Below are positions 1 to 5,425 of a DNA stretch of 5,425 nucleotides, piece by piece. This DNA comes from Verrucomicrobiia bacterium (GTDB taxonomy: Bacteria; Verrucomicrobiota; Verrucomicrobiae; Limisphaerales; UBA11358). The notes beneath the pieces were generated by a model. That model had not been told where the DNA came from. It saw only the letters and a list, made by a program, of their open reading frames with translations, and did no database searches. Each line of letters opens with the position of its first letter. Position 1 is the stretch's first letter. Both the position numbers and the translations under genes were made by a program. The stretch spans positions 1-5,425 of the forward strand of contig JASHZU010000217.1 of the NCBI GenBank assembly GCA_030042375.1. Reading direction: 5' to 3'.

Positions 1-1470
1 GACTTAAAAGAGCCGGCCAAGTTTAAATCATGGCTCTTTGGCATCGCGCGGAACCGCATTCACAACACCTTTCGCCAGCAAACCCGCAACCCGCTCGCCG
101 CCGCGGAACCGTTGGATGAAGTTGCGGCGACGACTGCCACCGTTTCCAACCCCGCCGGCCACGCCATCAGCAAGGAGGAAGAGGAAATCCTGTGGCGCTC
201 GCTGGCGCAGGTGCCGGATGCCTACCGCGAGCCGCTGGTGTTGTTTTATCGCGAACAACAATCCATCGAGCGCGTCGCCGCCATTTTAGAGTTATCGGAA
301 GAAGCGACGCGGCAGCGGCTCTCGCGCGGGCGAAAATTATTGCAGGAGCAAGTCACGGCCTTTGTGGAGGGCGCGCTGGCACGGACAAATCCCGGCCAGG
401 CCTTCACGATGGGCGTGCTCGCGGCATTGCCCATCTCGCTCGCGGCGTCGGCCAAGGCCGTCACGGTGGCGGCTTCCGCGGCCAAAGGCGGCGCGGCGGT
501 GACGGGCGCATCGTTTTTGTCCATGCTCAGCGCGTTGCTTGGCCCGATAATCGGGATAGTGGCCGGCTATCTCGGCATGCGCGCGGGCCTGAAATCCACC
601 CGCACGCCGCGTGAACGCGCCATGATGGTCCGTTACAATTGGTGTCATATTGGCGGGTTCATCGTTTTCTTCGCGGCTTGTTTTCTTTTAGGCTCTTTGC
701 CCGACCGGAATCAACCGGTGCTCCGAATTTCCATTGGGATGGTGGCCATCATCGCCTACACGGTTTTTATCTTCGTCACTGCGTTCTGGTTCAAAAACGC
801 ATTTGCGCGAATTCGTGAAGAAGAACAGCAGCTCCACCCGGAACTATACGAGAACCAAACGACATCATGGTTTGCGACGTCGTGGTGGACGATGCCGTAT
901 GAATATCGCAGCCGCACCACACTGTTCGGTTTACCGCTGGTGCATTATCGGATGGGCACATTGCCGGGACAAAAGCGGCAGCCGGCGGTCGGCTGGATTG
1001 CTTTTGGTGAAGTTGCTTATGGAATTTTGTACGCCAGCGGCGGCATTGCGGTGGGCGGTATCAGCACCGGTGGCGTGAGCATTGGGATCTTTGCCTTCGG
1101 TGGCCTGGGCCTCGGGCTGGTCGCCTTTGGCGGACTGGCCATTGGCGGGCTGGCGCTGGGCGGCGGAGCCATCGGTCTGGTGGCGACCGGCGGTCTGGCC
1201 ATCGCGTGGCACGCGGCCGCAGGAGGATTGGTTGCCGCACATGACCTGGCTGTCGGCGGCCAGGTAATCGCGAACCACGCCAACGATGCCGTGGCGCGGG
1301 CCTTTTTTGCGCGCTATCGCTGGCTGGATATGACCCGGCCGGCCTCAATGAGCGTGTTTTGGGTACTTTGCTTTGCGCCAATGGTCGTGCAAATCCTGGC
1401 CTGGAACTGGTGGCGGCGAAAAATGGCCAAAAAAATCGTGGCCGGCCCACAGCCCGGCGCAAGCTACTGA
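1..1470 (+). CDS. Sigma-70 family (ECF-like) RNA polymerase sigma factor with C-terminal membrane domain, 5'-truncated by window edge
   Basis: Promoter-recognition subunit of RNA polymerase, fused to a membrane domain. The frame is open from base 1 and the first residues (FKSWLFGIARNR) match the end of sigma region 2, so the true start lies to the left; the TTG at 112 is only an internal codon. Of 489 visible residues, about 59-114 form sigma region 4: a 'VPDAYREPLVLFY' segment, then a helix-turn-helix around SIERVAAILELSEEATRQRL. After residue 130 the protein is hydrophobic: likely membrane segments near 170-194, 217-232, 245-264 and 453-471, with an 'LFGLPLVHYRMG' segment (308-319) and a Gly-rich repeat block (347-401). 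It ends in TGA, convergent with the next gene. Canonical ECF factors are about 180-200 residues, so the tail is an unusual extension. Anti-sigma or membrane-sensing function of the tail is inference; sigma identity is firm. Confidence 0.88.
   Translation, partial: DLKEPAKFKSWLFGIARNRIHNTFRQQTRNPLAAAEPLDEVAATTATVSNPAGHAISKEEEEILWRSLAQVPDAYREPLVLFYREQQSIERVAAILELSEEATRQRLSRGRKLLQEQVTAFVEGALARTNPGQAFTMGVLAALPISLAASAKAVTVAASAAKGGAAVTGASFLSMLSALLGPIIGIVAGYLGMRAGLKSTRTPRERAMMVRYNWCHIGGFIVFFAACFLLGSLPDRNQPVLRISIGMVAIIAYTVFIFVTAFWFKNAFARIREEEQQLHPELYENQTTSWFATSWWTMPYEYRSRTTLFGLPLVHYRMGTLPGQKRQPAVGWIAFGEVAYGILYASGGIAVGGISTGGVSIGIFAFGGLGLGLVAFGGLAIGGLALGGGAIGLVATGGLAIAWHAAAGGLVAAHDLAVGGQVIANHANDAVARAFFARYRWLDMTRPASMSVFWVLCFAPMVVQILAWNWWRRKMAKKIVAGPQPGASY
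1039..1203 (+). repeat. Eleven tandem Gly-rich pentapeptide-like repeats within the sigma factor tail
   Basis: Read in frame, this stretch divides exactly into eleven five-residue units with consensus G-(G/I/L)-hydrophobic-(A/S)-hydrophobic, for example GGIAV, GGLAI, GGLAL and GLVAF. Two looser units (GWIAF, GEVAY) lie just upstream. There are no charged residues in the block. At the DNA level the units are only loosely alike, so the period is kept at the protein level rather than being a recent DNA expansion. A compact repetitive fold or tightly packed membrane helices are both possible. It is not the classical A(D/N)Lxx pentapeptide repeat. Confidence 0.8.
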
Positions 1471-1648: not shown

Positions 1649-2509
1649 TCACTTTTCAACCGTAGTTTCGCTTTGCAATTTTTCCCAATCCGGGTCCGGG
1701 CTGGTGTCATCCTCCCAATCGGAACTGGGCGCGAGCCATTTGTCCGATTCCACGTGACCGTCGGCAAAGTTCAGTTCATAAGCGCCGCCGTGCCGGGTGG
1801 CCGGCAGGTCGGGAATGGTATTTACCGGACCCATATCCACGACAAACATGGAATCATTAATGGTGCTGCCGTCTTCATCAATCAAATACCACATCTGGGC
1901 AGGTTGTGTGATTTGATTTTCCCTTCGGAAGAAAGTGTAGGTGAGTGCCTGGTCAAAGTCGGGCGTTGTGAAATACGTCACACCGGTCGGGTCGCCATAA
2001 CTCCGGCCACTCATCCATGAATTCATCGAATAGCTGCGAACCACCGGCCAGCCGCCCAGACTCCGGTCATCGGCGGGGCAGCGATAGATGCCCACCGTTT
2101 TGTTATACTGCCAGATGGCGCCCTGTTCCAAGGCATAAATATTGGTGCAGTCGAATTGAGGGCTGGGGCCGTAATCGTTGTCGCTGGGTTCTTCGTATGA
2201 CGCCCAGCCCGGACACCACGAATAGGGATTGACGGGGTAATCGTCAAAACCGATCGGCCAGCATGAGACCAAATCGCCACTATTGTCATCCGCATAGTTT
2301 TTGCAGCAAATGGACAATTGCCGAAGATTGTTGAGGCAGGCGCTGGCCTGCCCTTTTCGTTCGGCCTGGTTCAAGACCGGCAGCAGCACCGCCGCGAGAA
2401 TGCCGATGACGGCAATCACCACCAGCAGCTCGATCAGCGTAAATGCCTTTTTTCGCTGGTGGTTTTTCCCGCAATTATTTTCCCCCGATTTTGGAATTTT
2501 ACCAGGCAC
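1649..2509 (-). CDS. Pseudopilin-like prepilin with H-X9-DG domain
   Basis: This is a 286-residue protein processed by prepilin peptidase and anchored by its N-terminal helix, as in type II secretion pseudopilins and type IV pilins. A polar leader (1-22, rich in Lys/Asn) ends in RKKA, followed by FTLIELLVVIAVIGILAA. Cleavage is predicted between Ala22 and Phe23, with the conserved Glu at mature position 5 (Glu27). The body contains IYRCPAD (141-147), an 'RSYSMN' segment (158-163) and His240, nine residues, then Asp250-Gly251. That is the H-X9-DG motif of prepilin-processing-associated proteins common in Planctomycetes and Verrucomicrobia. The start is GTG at 2509, supported by a GAGGA site 4 nt upstream and an in-frame stop shortly above. 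The first 11 nt overlap the end of the glycosyltransferase gene, so the two are probably cotranscribed. Cargo or fibre role unknown. Confidence 0.9.
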   Translation of the reverse strand: MPGKIPKSGENNCGKNHQRKKAFTLIELLVVIAVIGILAAVLLPVLNQAERKGQASACLNNLRQLSICCKNYADDNSGDLVSCWPIGFDDYPVNPYSWCPGWASYEEPSDNDYGPSPQFDCTNIYALEQGAIWQYNKTVGIYRCPADDRSLGGWPVVRSYSMNSWMSGRSYGDPTGVTYFTTPDFDQALTYTFFRRENQITQPAQMWYLIDEDGSTINDSMFVVDMGPVNTIPDLPATRHGGAYELNFADGHVESDKWLAPSSDWEDDTSPDPDWEKLQSETTVEK

Positions 2510-3713
2510 GTTTTCCTCTGGGAATAAAAAGTGTTACATATATCCCCTTGATAAACCCAAGTGCGCAAACAAAAGTAAATATCGGATAGTAAACCAGCGA
2601 ATAAGGAAATATAAGCCATATTTTTGAAGGCTCTTTCCTTAAATCATAATTTACCGCAACATAGGGGATCGAGAATAAAGGATAAAGCAGATAAAGAAGC
2701 GCAATCTTATCAAGCCTCATTCCACTTTCTGTCCGGGCAAACCCAAAAGAGGAAAAAAATGAGTTCCCGGTATCTCTGAATGAATCGAAATGAACGAAAA
2801 AGTTCGTGAGAAAGATGAAATTATTTACAAAAGAAACAAGGAAGGCAATGGCCAGGAGCACATTGGTCACCAGGAACAATATGACAACCGGATTTTTCAT
2901 AAAAAACTTAAAATGAATTATGAAATTCTGTATTGCTCCACCAGACCATCTCACGGTTCGCTGATACCATGCTTCCAAAGTCTCAGGAACATAAGTATGA
3001 ATTGGAAGAATGCCTTCTTGTGTCTTCATTCCAGTCTCTCCTATCTTTAAAGCCAGGTCCTGGTCTTCCGTAAGAAAATTATCGCTAAACATCCCTACTT
3101 TCTCGAAAACACCCCTTTTGACTGCTATGGATGCACCCCACAAAGCCACGGTTGAAAAAGGATTATAGGAAACCTGGATCAGCCCATACATTCCATATTC
3201 AACTCGTTGCATGCTTGCAAGAAATCCCCGGTTTATCGGAACAGGCCTTCTACTCACTCCCCCTACTTTTTCATCTTCCAGCCTGGCTATGGAATCCTGG
3301 ACGATTTTCCCGTTTATTTTCGTGTCCGAGTCGAGTATCCAGATGATTTCCCCTTTTGTCGTTGGAAAAGCACAGTTAATCGATTTTGATTTTCCAAGAT
3401 TGATCTTATTGTTTATCACCTGGATCGGATATTTTCTCCCTAAAGTCTCCAATATGTCCAAAGTGTTGTCTGTGCTCTTGTCATTGATTACGATAACTTC
3501 AAACCTGCCCTGTTCATTGGATTTAAACACGCTTTCCACCGTTTCAACAATATAATCTGCATCATTGTGCGTGGGAATCATGAAAGAAATGAATGGTTTT
3601 GTTTTCGCCTTAACCGTCTTGTGTATTTCAAAAATAAAAACGGTTATCATAAAGGAAAGTGTTAAAATAAACACAGCAAAAGCAATATCATTGAAAGTTG
3701 ACAGGCTGATCAT
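2499..3713 (-). CDS. Membrane-bound family 2 glycosyltransferase (processive PgaC/hyaluronan synthase-like)
   Basis: This 404-residue enzyme is predicted to transfer sugars from nucleotide-sugar donors at the inner face of the membrane, probably building or extruding a polysaccharide. One membrane helix (about 10-30) precedes a GT-A domain: FISFMIPTHNDADYI (41-55), VINDKSTDNT (75-84), the DSD metal/nucleotide motif (128-130), the acceptor/catalytic TED motif (215-217), and a variant of QxxRW at 251-256 (QRTVRW). Further membrane segments lie near 276-305, 337-352 and 365-388. The ATG start at 3713 has an AGGAGA site 10 nt upstream. The gene is markedly AT-rich: hand counts gave 25/60 G+C at 3421-3480 and 19/60 at 3601-3660, against 42/60 at 2041-2100 in the adjacent pseudopilin. 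It ends abruptly at GKRAW, where relatives usually continue with a short W-x-K-T-x-R type tail. Sugar specificity cannot be read from sequence; acquisition by transfer is inferred. Confidence 0.88.
   Translation of the reverse strand: MISLSTFNDIAFAVFILTLSFMITVFIFEIHKTVKAKTKPFISFMIPTHNDADYIVETVESVFKSNEQGRFEVIVINDKSTDNTLDILETLGRKYPIQVINNKINLGKSKSINCAFPTTKGEIIWILDSDTKINGKIVQDSIARLEDEKVGGVSRRPVPINRGFLASMQRVEYGMYGLIQVSYNPFSTVALWGASIAVKRGVFEKVGMFSDNFLTEDQDLALKIGETGMKTQEGILPIHTYVPETLEAWYQRTVRWSGGAIQNFIIHFKFFMKNPVVILFLVTNVLLAIAFLVSFVNNFIFLTNFFVHFDSFRDTGNSFFSSFGFARTESGMRLDKIALLYLLYPLFSIPYVAVNYDLRKEPSKIWLIFPYSLVYYPIFTFVCALGFIKGIYVTLFIPRGKRAW
2514..2519 (-). promoter_or_regulatory. Ribosome binding site deciding the GTG start of the pseudopilin
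   Basis: On the minus strand this reads AGAGGA, followed by AAAC and then GTG at 2509. It lies inside the last codons of the upstream glycosyltransferase gene. It is the only good Shine-Dalgarno match near the start and justifies choosing GTG. Confidence 0.65.
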
Positions 3714-3723
3714 TTAATTGGGA

Positions 3724-3729
3724 TCTCCT
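3724..3729 (-). promoter_or_regulatory. Shine-Dalgarno site of the glycosyltransferase gene
   Basis: On the minus strand this reads AGGAGA, 10 nt before the ATG at 3713. It is the strongest ribosome binding site in the window. This contrasts with the plus-strand genes to the right, which have none I can recognise. Confidence 0.7.
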
Positions 3730-3741
3730 ATATGATTTCTT

Positions 3742-3766
3742 GCCCACGATCAGCGTGGGCTTTTTT
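3742..3766 (+). terminator. Intrinsic terminator, plus-strand orientation
   Basis: GCCCACG (3742-3748) pairs perfectly with CGTGGGC (3754-3760) around a 5-nt ATCAG loop, followed directly by six T residues (3761-3766). This is a textbook Rho-independent terminator for rightward transcription. No plus-strand gene lies immediately to its left: the neighbour is the start of the leftward glycosyltransferase gene, 28 nt away. On the minus strand the hairpin lies in the glycosyltransferase leader with no T run after it, so there it could act only as a leader structure. Confidence 0.75.
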
Positions 3767-3957
3767 GTGATTTTCTGCCTGCCCCAGAGATTAGCAAGGA
3801 CGTTTTTTTTGGTTAGCCCTTGGTTTTTCGCCGGCACAAGGGGCGATTTGTTGCCGCCTTTCCACACGCTTTTCCATGTCATCTGAACCGGTTGCAGCCA
3901 TTTTGAGTAACGGCAGGATGTTATCTTGTTGCCAACCAAGATTTAGTCAGAACATAT
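3767..3957. other. Intergenic region without a conventional gene
   Basis: This stretch separates the terminator from the first small lipoprotein copy. A possible stem pairs CCCTTG (3817-3822) with CAAGGG (3837-3842) across a 14-nt loop, but no T run follows. The minus-strand open frame covering 3688-3939 reads as low-complexity Lys-rich sequence with no recognisable motif, overlaps the glycosyltransferase start, and is not called. The right-hand part (from 3887) belongs to the tandem repeat region described separately. Confidence 0.5.
3887..3910 (+). pseudogene. Tail remnant of a third small-lipoprotein copy
   Basis: Read in frame this gives T-G-C-S-H-F-E-stop, the same TGCSH that ends the frame-corrected copy downstream (TGCSHGSSIE). 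The DNA at 3887-3901 matches 4028-4042 at 14 of 15 bases. A stop (TGA at 3884-3886) precedes it in this frame, and no hydrophobic signal segment can be found upstream in any plus frame. It is therefore either a decayed copy or the edge of the duplicated block. Confidence 0.45.
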
Positions 3958-4040
3958 ATGAAAAACATTTCTTGTAAAAAAATTCGGGTCATCATACTAA
4001 TCCTTGGATTCGCCTTTGTGCTGCCTCACCGGATGCAGCC
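3908..4040 (+). repeat. Tandem direct repeat, unit 1
   Basis: Unit 1 runs from a TAACGGC start through a spacer, an ATG and a short hydrophobic coding stretch to ACCGGATGCAGCC. It aligns over its whole length with unit 2 at 4066-4197, with several small indels. The longest shared blocks include GATTCGCC, TTTGTGCTGCC and CAGAACA. The ATG-to-ATG distance between units is 155 nt. The copies have clearly diverged, so the duplication is not recent. Confidence 0.82.
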
Positions 4041-4060
4041 ATGGGAGCAGTATTGAATGA
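3958..4060 (+). pseudogene. Frameshifted copy of the very small lipoprotein gene
   Basis: Starting at ATG 3958, the protein begins MKNISCKKIRVIILILGFA and parallels the intact copy at 4113. After GCC (4012-4014) two bases (GC) present in the other copy are missing. As written, the frame continues FVLPHRMQPWEQY and stops at 4056, giving 32 residues with no lipobox. Restoring the two bases gives AALCCLTGC followed by SHGSSIE and a TGA at 4058-4060, a proper lipobox with a mature part of eight residues. No Shine-Dalgarno site is visible. It is most simply an inactivated duplicate. Expression of the frameshifted 32-residue hydrophobic peptide cannot be excluded. Confidence 0.6.
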
Positions 4061-4065
4061 GATGT

Positions 4066-4197
4066 TAACGGCGTTATGTTATCGTGTTGCTAACCAAACA
4101 ATCAGAACAAATATGAAAACATTCCTTAAAAAAAATATTCGGGTCATTGTACTCGTCCTTGGATTCGCCGCTTTGTGCTGCCTTACCGGCTGCGATT
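4066..4197 (+). repeat. Tandem direct repeat, unit 2
   Basis: Second copy of the block at 3908-4040, beginning with TAACGGC and carrying the intact small lipoprotein gene. The non-coding part upstream of the ATG is also conserved (GTTATC, TGTTGC, AACCAA, TCAGAACA). The duplication therefore included the leader or promoter region as well as the reading frame. Confidence 0.82.
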
Positions 4198-4202
4198 ACT
4201 AA
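4113..4202 (+). CDS. Very small lipoprotein precursor, 29 residues, predicted mature peptide Cys-Asp-Tyr
   Basis: ATG at 4113, TAA at 4200-4202. The N-terminus MKTFLKKN gives a positively charged n-region (with Arg10), followed by a hydrophobic core VIVLVLGFAALCC and a lipobox LTGC (residues 24-27), then only Asp-Tyr. Lipid attachment would be at Cys27, with signal peptidase II cutting before it, leaving a lipidated tripeptide; Asp at +2 is the classical inner-membrane retention residue in Gram-negative bacteria such as E. coli. Coding status is supported by the upstream copy: in the hydrophobic core the differences are synonymous or Ile/Val exchanges. No Shine-Dalgarno site is seen; the leader is A-rich. 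It is not LptM or entericidin by motif. The released signal peptide might be the real product, or the ORF might be a leader or lysis-type peptide; all of that is speculation. Confidence 0.62.
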   Translation: MKTFLKKNIRVIVLVLGFAALCCLTGCDY

Positions 4203-4298
4203 ATAAGCCACTGACGGCTCAATCGCCAGGGTTCGGCGTATAGATTTGCAGGCGCGCCGCGTGACATATGGACCGCGGCCGTGTCTTAGTCTTTACCA
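4203..4298 (+). other. Spacer upstream of the membrane protein gene
   Basis: This short stretch has no gene, no clear terminator after the small lipoprotein and no convincing promoter. A TATAGA-like hexamer at 4239-4244 lies 22 nt after a CTGACG hexamer, too far apart for a normal sigma-70 promoter. Whether the small lipoprotein and the following genes share a transcript is undecided. Confidence 0.4.
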
Positions 4299-4964
4299 AT
4301 GTCGCCGGGAATTCGCTGCCAAACTTTTCTTCTAGCTTTTCGTTTAAACGGGTTAAACTCAGCCGTGCACCAGCGAAGTTTTCTCATTGGCGCGGTGGCG
4401 GCAATTGTCGGCATTTGGTTGTTGGCGATGGCCGGGCACTGGTATTTGGAGAACCTCAAGATGACCGCGGACAAAGTCCGCGTGTATGTGGAGTCGGTTG
4501 ATTTTTCCCAGCTCACCGGGGATGCGCGGGCCCGGGCCATCCGCAAATTGGAGGACGACCTTAACGCCCTGTCCTACGAAGAGCGCCAGAAACTGCGGCT
4601 GCAGCACACGATTCGTTCATGGTTCGACCAGATGACGGAAGAGGAAAAGAGCCAATTTTTGGAGGCGACCCTGCCGACCGGTTTTAAGCAAATGATTAAC
4701 GCCTACCAGCAGATGCCCGAGGACAAACGGCGCCGGCTCATTGACAACACGATGAAGAATTTGCAGAAGGCCAATAGCCAGGCGCAGCCCAACGGCGGTA
4801 CAAATGGTCCCGCGCTTAGCCCGGAACTGGAGGCGAAGGTCCGGACGATTGGGCTGGACACCTTTTACAGCCAAAGCTCGGCGGAAACGAAAGCGGAACT
4901 GGCGCCGGTGCTGGAGGAATTGCAGCACCAAATGGAGACGGAGAAAATCCCGCGCCAGCAATGA
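4299..4964 (+). CDS. Single-pass membrane protein with helical, charged soluble domain; function unknown
   Basis: I do not recognise a named family. Using ATG 4299 the product is 221 residues. One membrane helix ([19 protein letters not shown], 28-46) is followed by a charged, probably helical domain likely facing the periplasm. A local pattern recurs: LSYEER (91-96), MTEEEK (112-117), MPEDKR (139-144), then LSPELE (173-178) after a polar Gln/Asn/Gly linker. Each looks like a helix start capped by Ser/Thr/Pro plus acids. An in-frame GTG at 4365 would give 199 residues with the helix at positions 6-24, more typical for an anchor; neither start has a Shine-Dalgarno site, so the start is uncertain. 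The stop overlaps the next gene's start (ATGA), implying translational coupling and a possible accessory role for the pseudopilin. Confidence 0.75.
4342..4358. promoter_or_regulatory. Short inverted repeat near the alternative GTG start
   Basis: GTTTAA (4342-4347) and TTAAAC (4353-4358) form perfect 6-bp arms around ACGGG, ending 6 nt before the GTG at 4365. If translation starts at that GTG, this would be a leader site such as an operator or small hairpin. If it starts at ATG 4299, the site is coding. A chance occurrence is quite possible. Confidence 0.2.
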
Positions 4965-5425
4965 ACCCCGCGACTGTTCATGAGAGGCGAACAACGGCCA
5001 CGGCCTTCAGCCTGCTCGAACTACTCATCGTCATCGCCATCATCGGGATTCTGGCCGCGCTGTTGCTGCCGGTGTTGAATCGCGCGGAAGAAGAAGGCCG
5101 CGCCACCGCCTGCGTCAGCAACCTGCACCAGATCGGACTGGCATTGCAAATGTACGTGGACGCGAACAACAACACTTTGCCGACCATGTACGATGTGCCG
5201 TTGGACACCAATGCCATGGCCACGAACAATTTGCCCAACGTGGATACCGTTCTGAGAACTGAGTTGGGCAACACGAATGTTTTGCGCTGTCCTTCGGACT
5301 TCCAGGGAATTTTTACGCTGACCGGCTCGAGTTATTCGTGGAACTACCTTTTGAACGGCGAGAACGCGAACAACCTGGTGGTGATGGGCATGACGTTTAA
5401 TCCGCACGCGATTCCGGTTTTTTTC
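4961..5425 (+). CDS. Pseudopilin-like prepilin, 3'-truncated by window edge
   Basis: The ATG at 4961 overlaps the stop of the upstream gene (ATGA), and the frame stays open to the right edge (155 residues visible). A short leader with RR at 9-10 ends in TATA, followed by [18 protein letters not shown]. Cleavage is predicted between Ala15 and Phe16, with Glu20 at mature position 5. The next segment, [17 protein letters not shown] (35-51), closely parallels the pseudopilin at 1649-2509, and LRCPSD (108-113) matches that protein's CPAD motif, so the two are paralogs. The H-X9-DG motif, if present, would lie beyond the window. It is expected to be processed by a prepilin peptidase and assembled by a type II secretion or pilus-like machine. 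No clear Shine-Dalgarno site is seen, which fits coupled translation. Confidence 0.9.

What the first reader, a model, noticed from the sequence alone, without database searches (positions are those of the whole stretch)
4113..4202. An intact 29-residue lipoprotein gene whose mature product would be only Cys-Asp-Tyr
The small ORF has every part of a lipoprotein signal peptide: a basic n-region, a hydrophobic core and LTGC. It has almost nothing after the lipidated Cys. Either the lipidated tripeptide or the cleaved signal peptide would be the functional product. Enterococcal sex pheromones derived from lipoprotein signal peptides are a known precedent for the second idea, though in another phylum. 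ORFs of this size are usually skipped in annotation.
Basis: partly seen in the sequence, partly recalled or inferred. Interest (0 to 1): 0.72.

Follow-up and report, generated by a model that had tools for sequence, protein, structure and literature searches.

The report
Duplicated micro-lipoprotein gene ending in Cys-Asp-Tyr
A very small bacterial gene that encodes almost nothing but a lipoprotein export signal is really there, sits beside a tandem sister copy that has lost its reading frame, and is kept at the same length in one close relative, but its function is untested and may be none.

Summary
Window 4113-4202 (+) encodes MKTFLKKNIRVIVLVLGFAALCCLTGCDY: a textbook Sec/SPII signal peptide with LTGC and two residues after the Cys. 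Dinucleotide shuffles give such an ORF 0.017 times per window and 0.003 times per intergenic region. The protein search finds one homologue, P0121, ending ...LCCLTGCDL, so lipobox and stop position are kept. In the upstream copy (3958-4056) a 2-nt length difference breaks the frame before the lipobox. No convincing homologue was seen in 320 genomes of the related order, 387 of the phylum, or 82 regions upstream of the conserved neighbour, but none of the 320 is close (neighbour 66% identical at best). Best reading: a young, lineage-restricted micro-lipoprotein whose kept part is the signal peptide, not the tripeptide. Translation and function are inferred. The pheromone idea has no support beyond form.

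The parts
4113..4202 (+). 29-codon ORF, predicted micro-lipoprotein MKTFLKKNIRVIVLVLGFAALCCLTGCDY (copy 2)
   Evidence: homologue P0121 with the same stop position
4113..4190 (+). predicted 26-residue Sec/SPII signal peptide: basic n-region, hydrophobic core, LTG
   Evidence: sequence; regex and hydropathy filter. SignalP/LipoP not available
4191..4199 (+). predicted mature lipotripeptide Cys-Asp-Tyr (Cys-Asp-Leu in P0121)
   Evidence: cleavage and lipidation inferred
3958..4056 (+). upstream tandem copy (copy 1): same start and hydrophobic core, then a 2-nt length difference relative to copy 2 shifts the frame before the lipobox; reads MKNISCKKIRVIILILGFAFVLPHRMQPWEQY
3896..4036 (+). tandem repeat unit 1 (141 nt)
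   Evidence: global alignment to unit 2, 119 of 137 aligned positions identical
4037..4193 (+). tandem repeat unit 2 (157 nt)
3887..3895 (+). ACCGGTTGC, left edge of the duplication
   Evidence: ACCGGNTGC occurs only three times in the window (both strands searched), all at unit edges
4028..4036 (+). ACCGGATGC, junction between units
4185..4193 (+). ACCGGCTGC, right edge of the duplication = Thr-Gly-Cys codons of the lipobox
4066..4112 (+). 5' leader of copy 2 (TAACGGC...CAGAACAAAT), matching 3908-3957; A-rich near the ATG, no Shine-Dalgarno seen; may hold the start signals
   Evidence: mean unpaired probability around the start 0.61 at 4113 (0.53 at 3958, 0.37 at 4041)
4041..4112 (+). upstream extension of the same frame (MGAVLNEMLTALCYRVANQTIRTN), included in P0121 as deposited; judged probably not translated
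   Evidence: 5 of 24 residues differ from P0121; copy 1 has no ATG, GTG or TTG in its corresponding stretch (starts its ORF at 3958)

Best explanation
A real but young and lineage-restricted gene of a bacterium that is probably a verrucomicrobium encodes a 29-residue prolipoprotein that is essentially a signal peptide. Inferred route: translation from ATG 4113, Sec export, lipidation by Lgt, cleavage by LspA, giving a 26-residue hydrophobic peptide and lipid-Cys-Asp-Tyr. Inferred history: a single gene already ending in Cys-Asp-x was tandemly duplicated through the short repeat ACCGGNTGC, one copy of which is its own lipobox. The upstream copy thereby gained a tail read from former 5' leader and later lost its frame. 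The part that is kept is the membrane-inserting signal peptide plus the Cys, while what follows varies. So the most likely selected product is the membrane peptide or lipid anchor itself, acting locally at the inner membrane, not a specific lipotripeptide. Shown: ORF, duplicated units and their edges, frame kept in one relative, LspA in related genomes. Inferred: translation, processing, activity.
For: ORF and chance rate. Residues KNIRVIVLVLGFAALCCLTGCD are identical in 22 of 22 positions against 19 of 24 in the upstream extension (one-sided Fisher 0.031). In the 18 gap-free codons shared by the two tandem copies, 6 substitutions give 4 silent and 2 Ile/Val changes (simulated P 0.06-0.09 for at most 2 changes, 0.002-0.004 if also confined to I/L/M/V). 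Duplication edges. The two replacements that P0121 shows within the tail of copy 1 are, by the only single-base routes, silent in the lipobox frame (AGT>AGC, stop TGA>TAA), consistent with copy 1 having been coding. LspA family PF01252 over cut-off in 8 of 8 related genomes.
Against: Only one homologue, and close. Over the whole 29 residues the difference from the extension is not significant (3 of 29 against 5 of 24, Fisher 0.25). The 22-residue stretch and the I/L/M/V criterion were chosen after seeing the data. The 5' leader of the repeat is also similar between the copies, so most of the similarity only reports the duplication. No + strand promoter-like site reached the scan's threshold and no Shine-Dalgarno was seen. 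The DNA of the relative could not be read, so synonymous and non-synonymous rates are unknown, and that P0121 and P0002 share a contig is inferred. No convincing homologue in the 320, 387 and 21 genomes searched.
Confidence: 0.5

Rival explanations
1. A chance or decaying ORF in a low-GC accessory stretch: the frame is open and signal-like by accident or is the remnant of a former gene, and nothing is selected.
For: Seen in this contig and one close relative only; one of the two copies is already frameshifted; nothing similar in 82 regions upstream of the conserved neighbour in relatives; weak statistics of constraint; GC 35-46% over 2501-4250 between flanks of 49-66%.
Against: Chance 0.003 per intergenic region; stop, lipobox and 22 residues kept in P0121; silent or conservative changes between copies.
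Confidence: 0.3
2. Entericidin-like or type I-toxin-like membrane peptide pair: two tandem small membrane peptides, one restraining the other or both restrained by an antisense RNA.
For: Tandem homologous small membrane peptides; weak NCBIfam match to entericidin A over residues 10-28 (E 0.093); the antisense strand of unit 2 folds better than 197 of 200 shuffles (z -2.1).
Against: Match is 12.7 bits against a cut-off of 86; almost no mature part; one - strand promoter-like site where shuffles give 0.9; no Rfam match at E up to 1; copy 1 is frameshifted.
Confidence: 0.07
3. [quoted passage not shown]
For: Almost nothing but a lipoprotein signal peptide is encoded; in Enterococcus cCF10 is the last seven residues of a lipoprotein signal peptide (PMC7117660, passages).
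Against: Receptor, exporter and responsive operon not tested; known cases that I could name are Gram-positive plasmid systems; an outer membrane would be an extra barrier (recalled).
Confidence: 0.04
4. Regulatory upstream ORF or nascent-chain sensor: its translation or export controls in cis the gene that starts 162 nt downstream (GTG 4365), and the peptide is a by-product; or the true product is the 53-aa frame from 4041.
For: Same strand and upstream of a gene conserved in Verrucomicrobiae; the 53-aa frame is open in both homologues and is the form deposited as P0121.
Against: No similar ORF in 82 regions upstream of that gene in relatives; the extension changes at 5 of 24 residues, has a less open start (0.37 against 0.61) and lies partly over the tail of copy 1; no significant structure on the + strand of unit 2 (z -0.17).
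Confidence: 0.08

Closest known systems
Entericidin A/B (EcnA/EcnB) small lipoproteins of Enterobacteria
   Same: Tandem pair of homologous very small lipoproteins with [LV]T[GA]C (recalled); only NCBIfam match of the ORF at E up to 1. Described as an antidote/toxin system in a passage of PMC10782963
   Different: Entericidins have a mature part of about 20-27 residues with a shared motif (recalled); here it is 3, and the score is far under the cut-off
Enterococcal sex pheromone precursors and inhibitor peptides (cCF10/iCF10, cAD1/iAD1)
   Same: Lipoprotein signal peptide as source of an active 7-8 residue peptide (PMC7117660, passages); inhibitor precursors are signal-peptide-like ORFs of about 21-23 residues (length recalled)
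   Different: Gram-positive conjugative plasmids; the pheromone is cut from a lipoprotein precursor and the listed inhibitors show no Cys; no receptor or operon was looked for here beyond the window
Type I toxins in repeats (Ibs, Ldr)
   Same: Very small hydrophobic peptides, often in repeats (recalled; review PMC8309996 seen only in a search listing)
   Different: They have no lipobox (recalled); an antisense RNA defines them and none was shown here
Verrucomicrobial lipoprotein WP_009060351 of Methylacidiphilum fumariolicum
   Same: Predicted Sec/SPII lipoprotein of the same phylum; Lgt, LspA and Lnt predicted in that strain (PMC10260701, outline and section 15)
   Different: 139 residues with a 53-residue conserved C-terminal part

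Membership tests
Bacterial Sec/SPII lipoprotein | Basic n-region, hydrophobic core and lipobox L-[ASTVI]-[GAS]-C near residue 15-30 | tested here: met
   Sequence and filter; Cys is residue 27
Bacterial Sec/SPII lipoprotein | Host lineage has lipoprotein signal peptidase | tested here: met
   PF01252 over cut-off in 8 of 8 related genomes; the host genome itself is not held
Bacterial Sec/SPII lipoprotein | Lipidation and cleavage at Cys | not testable with these tools
   needs labelling or mass spectrometry
Entericidin (EcnA/EcnB) | Reaches the curated model score | tested here: not met
   NF007319 12.7 bits against 86; no Pfam family at E up to 1
Entericidin (EcnA/EcnB) | Conserved mature domain | tested here: not met
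   3 residues after cleavage; the match covers residues 10-28 of 29 and profile positions 4-20 of 41
Entericidin (EcnA/EcnB) | Tandem homologous genes | tested here: met
   but one copy is frameshifted
Type I toxin-antitoxin | Antisense RNA gene overlapping or beside the toxin ORF | tested here: inconclusive
   no Rfam match; one - strand promoter-like site, 0.9 expected; antisense fold z -2.1
Enterococcal-type signal-peptide pheromone | Active hepta- or octapeptide at the end of a lipoprotein signal peptide | not testable with these tools
   needs synthetic peptide and host
Enterococcal-type signal-peptide pheromone | Cognate receptor and regulator (PrgZ/PrgX type) and conjugative plasmid | not tested
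   host genome not held; the six window proteins scanned with Pfam and NCBIfam were not named as such among the families shown

The most novel reading that the evidence does not exclude
A signal-peptide-only lipoprotein gene is a functional gene type outside Gram-positives: the cell makes it to release either a bioactive signal-peptide fragment or a lipid-anchored tripeptide, which would be the shortest natural lipoprotein that I know of, and the gene duplicates through the codons of its own lipobox.
Probability: 0.1. Interest if true: 0.75.

Novelty: new variant of a known kind. Interest (0 to 1): 0.36.

Why it matters
If translated and processed, it would be a natural minimal substrate of the lipoprotein pathway, with the signal peptide and lipidated Cys as nearly the whole product. 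It would let one ask directly whether a lipoprotein signal peptide alone can be a selected gene product in a bacterium with two membranes. If it is not functional, it is a clean example of how a tandem duplication through a 9-nt repeat makes and breaks tiny ORFs.

Tried and rejected
Homology in plasmids (DNA of 3850-4260; protein of the 53-aa frame): no match. In phages (53-aa frame): 17 records, all at E 3 or worse, judged chance. Viral contigs: nothing confirmed for the downstream neighbour or for two alignments of the ORF. tblastn of the 29 residues against the 54 related loci: the best match in the part of the list that was printed is E 0.15. The DNA search of 320 genomes gave 6 genomes with matches spanning 23-43 nt of the query, judged chance. 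The protein search of the same 320 gave 3 genomes at E up to 0.05, in open frames of 532, 1011 and 460 aa. I aligned all three again (alignments end at residue 26, before the Cys; two reached residue 27) and did not identify those proteins further. The alignment search of 387 phylum genomes gave 26 genomes at E up to 0.1, with 20 loci returned. I looked at 6 of the 20: the best (L071) is a 44-residue lipoprotein with an unrelated 21-residue mature part, L072 is a signal-like stretch of a 144-residue frame, and the other four printed no lipoprotein of this kind. The other 14 loci and 6 hits without loci were not looked at.

Considered and dropped: that 3887-3901 is the end of a third, older gene copy. 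The local match is only 15 nt (score reached by 5 of 500 shuffles), the sequence before it is unlike the gene, and the edge-repeat model explains it without a third gene. That the repeat is a structured RNA: no Rfam match at E up to 1, + strand fold z -0.17. That the ORF is a truncated longer lipoprotein: P0121 stops at the same place. PHROGs and PADLOC gave nothing useful for the ORF (best PHROG E 0.044, a membrane protein).

Paper searches (listings): smallest, shortest, tiny or ultrashort lipoprotein (28 papers, 20 listed, none of those titles on a bacterial lipoprotein); small lipoproteins with small proteins and Verrucomicrobia (0); short lipoprotein, lipobox, small ORF (3, not read); small proteins of microbiomes (14, 8 listed, not read); stable signal peptides and lysis proteins (5, not read); signal-peptide signalling and RseP (13, 10 listed, not read). 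I saw no precedent of this size, but I read only PMC7117660 and PMC10782963 (passages) and PMC10260701 (outline and section 15), and most subscription journals are not held.

Full report
What is there. Window 4113-4202 (+) is an intact 29-codon ORF, MKTFLKKNIRVIVLVLGFAALCCLTGCDY. The Cys of LTGC is residue 27, so a cleaved product would be lipid-Cys-Asp-Tyr. With my filter for basic n-region, hydrophobic core, lipobox and at most 8 residues counted from the Cys, 300 dinucleotide shuffles of the window give 0.0167 such ORFs per window, and 1500 shuffles of 3714-4363 give 0.0033. The same filter finds one such ORF in 54 related loci of 768,769 bases, so the class is not enriched in these loci.

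The part that was missed. The ORF is the second of two tandem units. Units 3896-4036 and 4037-4193 align with 119 of 137 aligned positions identical, over 161 columns. The motif ACCGGNTGC occurs only three times in the window, both strands searched: at 3887, 4028 and 4185, which are the left edge, the junction and the right edge of the two units. AGCCAT follows the first two; the sequence after the third (GATTAC) is different. This is the pattern of a tandem duplication through a short direct repeat, one copy of which was the Thr-Gly-Cys part of the lipobox. It follows (inference) that the parent gene was the present downstream copy with its Cys-Asp-Tyr end, and that the upstream copy got its tail from the old 5' leader. 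The upstream ORF (3958-4056) starts the same way but differs by 2 nt in length just before the lipobox, so it now reads MKNISCKKIRVIILILGFAFVLPHRMQPWEQY and has no lipobox. An assembly error there cannot be excluded.

Host. No whole genome is held for the window. The gene downstream (GTG 4365 to 4964; 221 aa if read from 4299) belongs to an uncharacterised family with 2199 hits at E up to 0.001; in the 120 rows shown, 7 of 11 organism names are Verrucomicrobiae, Verrucomicrobiia or Limisphaerales, and 4 are other MAG labels. Of the 54 genome loci, 48 titles name Verrucomicrobiota or taxa that I know to belong there; 6 do not (three 'bacterium', two Proteobacteria, one Klebsiella pneumoniae, all MAGs). 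The gene is followed by a prepilin-like gene in 52 of 54 loci. So the host is most likely a verrucomicrobium.

Conservation. The 29 residues are too short for the protein search. The 53-aa frame that contains them (residues 14-53) has one hit at E up to 10 in a collection of 5.8 billion: P0121, E 3e-16, MGAALNKVLTAVSYRVANQTIRTNMKTFFVKNIRVIVLVLGFAALCCLTGCDL. Its contig is 2759 bases long, as is that of P0002, the 90%-identical neighbour; I infer that they share a contig. A profile search with both plus the upstream copy added nothing (3 candidates). The 22 residues KNIRVIVLVLGFAALCCLTGCD are unchanged, against 5 changes in the 24 residues before the Met (one-sided Fisher 0.031); over all 29 residues the contrast is 3 of 29 against 5 of 24 (0.25, not significant). 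The 22-residue stretch was picked after the fact.

Coding signal between the copies. In 18 gap-free codons, 6 substitutions are 4 silent and 2 Ile/Val. Simulation gives P 0.06-0.09 for at most two amino-acid changes and 0.002-0.004 when these must also stay within I/L/M/V; the second criterion was set after seeing the data. The 5' leader is also similar between the copies, so similarity as such only reports the duplication. In P0121 the two changes that fall within the tail of copy 1 are, by the only single-base routes, silent in the lipobox frame (AGT>AGC and TGA>TAA; chance about 0.05). This suggests that copy 1 was coding at least in that lineage.

Distribution. With the 29 residues, 320 genomes of the order of G001 gave 3 weak hits in long frames, and 21 genomes behind the loci gave hits in 8, at E 0.027 or worse. 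With the three-row alignment, 387 genomes drawn from the phylum gave hits in 26 at E up to 0.1; 6 of the 20 loci returned were looked at and none is a homologue. Upstream of the conserved neighbour, 82 regions (at most 1.5 kb each; 84 loci, 2 dropped for lack of upstream sequence; L091-L120 partly repeat genomes of L001-L054) gave 18 loose lipobox hits, of which by eye only one (L024, 64 aa, other strand) is a plausible lipoprotein and none is similar. Two limits apply. These searches would miss homologues below about 60% identity (my estimate; no positive control was run). And the genome set holds no close relative: the neighbour protein is at best 66% identical in the 320 genomes, against 90% for P0002. 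So absence there says little about close kin.

Surroundings. The glycosyltransferase gene next door (2499-3713, -) had no match at E up to 1e-10 in 8 related genomes; the tool warns that this had no positive control. The stretch 2501-4250 is 35-46% GC between flanks of 49-66%. The array may therefore sit in or beside an accessory segment.

Start site. The start at 4113 is favoured over 4041. The leader before 4113 is more open (mean unpaired probability 0.61, against 0.37 at 4041 and 0.53 at 3958). In copy 1 the first ATG, GTG or TTG after the stop is the corresponding ATG 3958. The extension is the part that changes most. A 53-aa product is not excluded.

How it most likely works. The pathway exists in related genomes: LspA (PF01252) is over cut-off in 8 of 8, and available metagenomes of Verrucomicrobiota other than the methanotrophs are said to contain LolA and lack LolB (PMC10260701, section 15). 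Expected product: a 26-residue signal peptide and lipid-Cys-Asp-Tyr. In E. coli an Asp after the Cys tends to keep a lipoprotein in the inner membrane (recalled; not known for this phylum). What is kept between copies and homologues is the signal peptide and the Cys codon; what follows is Asp-Tyr, Asp-Leu or, after the Cys codon of copy 1, unrelated. So if something is selected, it is more likely the membrane peptide or the lipid anchor than a tripeptide sequence. I give 0.5 to this reading, 0.3 to a chance or decaying ORF, and the rest to toxin-like, regulatory and pheromone readings.

Known relatives. Entericidin A is the only NCBIfam match at E up to 1 but fails its cut-off (12.7 against 86 bits), and there is almost no mature part. 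The enterococcal pheromones and inhibitors (PMC7117660, passages) resemble it in using a lipoprotein-type signal peptide; nothing further was tested. For the ORF, no Pfam family matches at E up to 1, no Rfam family matches the window at E up to 1, and no PADLOC family matches.

Noticed in passing
window 1-1470: ECF sigma factor regions fused in frame to a long hydrophobic domain with a glycine-rich repeat stretch (GGIAVGGISTGGVSIGIFAFGG...); in Pfam only sigma-70 families pass their cut-off.
   Followed up: no
window 4365-4964: Uncharacterised protein family with 2199 homologues at E up to 0.001, no Pfam family above its cut-off, followed by a prepilin-like gene in 52 of 54 related loci.
   Followed up: partly
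window 2499-3713 (-): Low-GC family 2 glycosyltransferase (best NCBIfam match PgaC/IcaA, 122 against a cut-off of 422), no match at E up to 1e-10 in 8 related genomes, without positive control: possibly an acquired gene.
   Followed up: partly
window 3742-3760: Intrinsic-terminator-like hairpin (7 pairs, 6 G-C) with a T run on the + strand, just upstream of the start of the - strand glycosyltransferase gene (2 such sites found in the region, 1.0 expected).
   Followed up: no
window 1649-2509 (-) and 4961-5425 (+): Two prepilin-like genes on opposite strands (N-methylation motif scanned and found in the first; the second judged from its sequence); the first overlaps the 3' end of the glycosyltransferase gene by 11 nt if its GTG start is right.
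   Followed up: no
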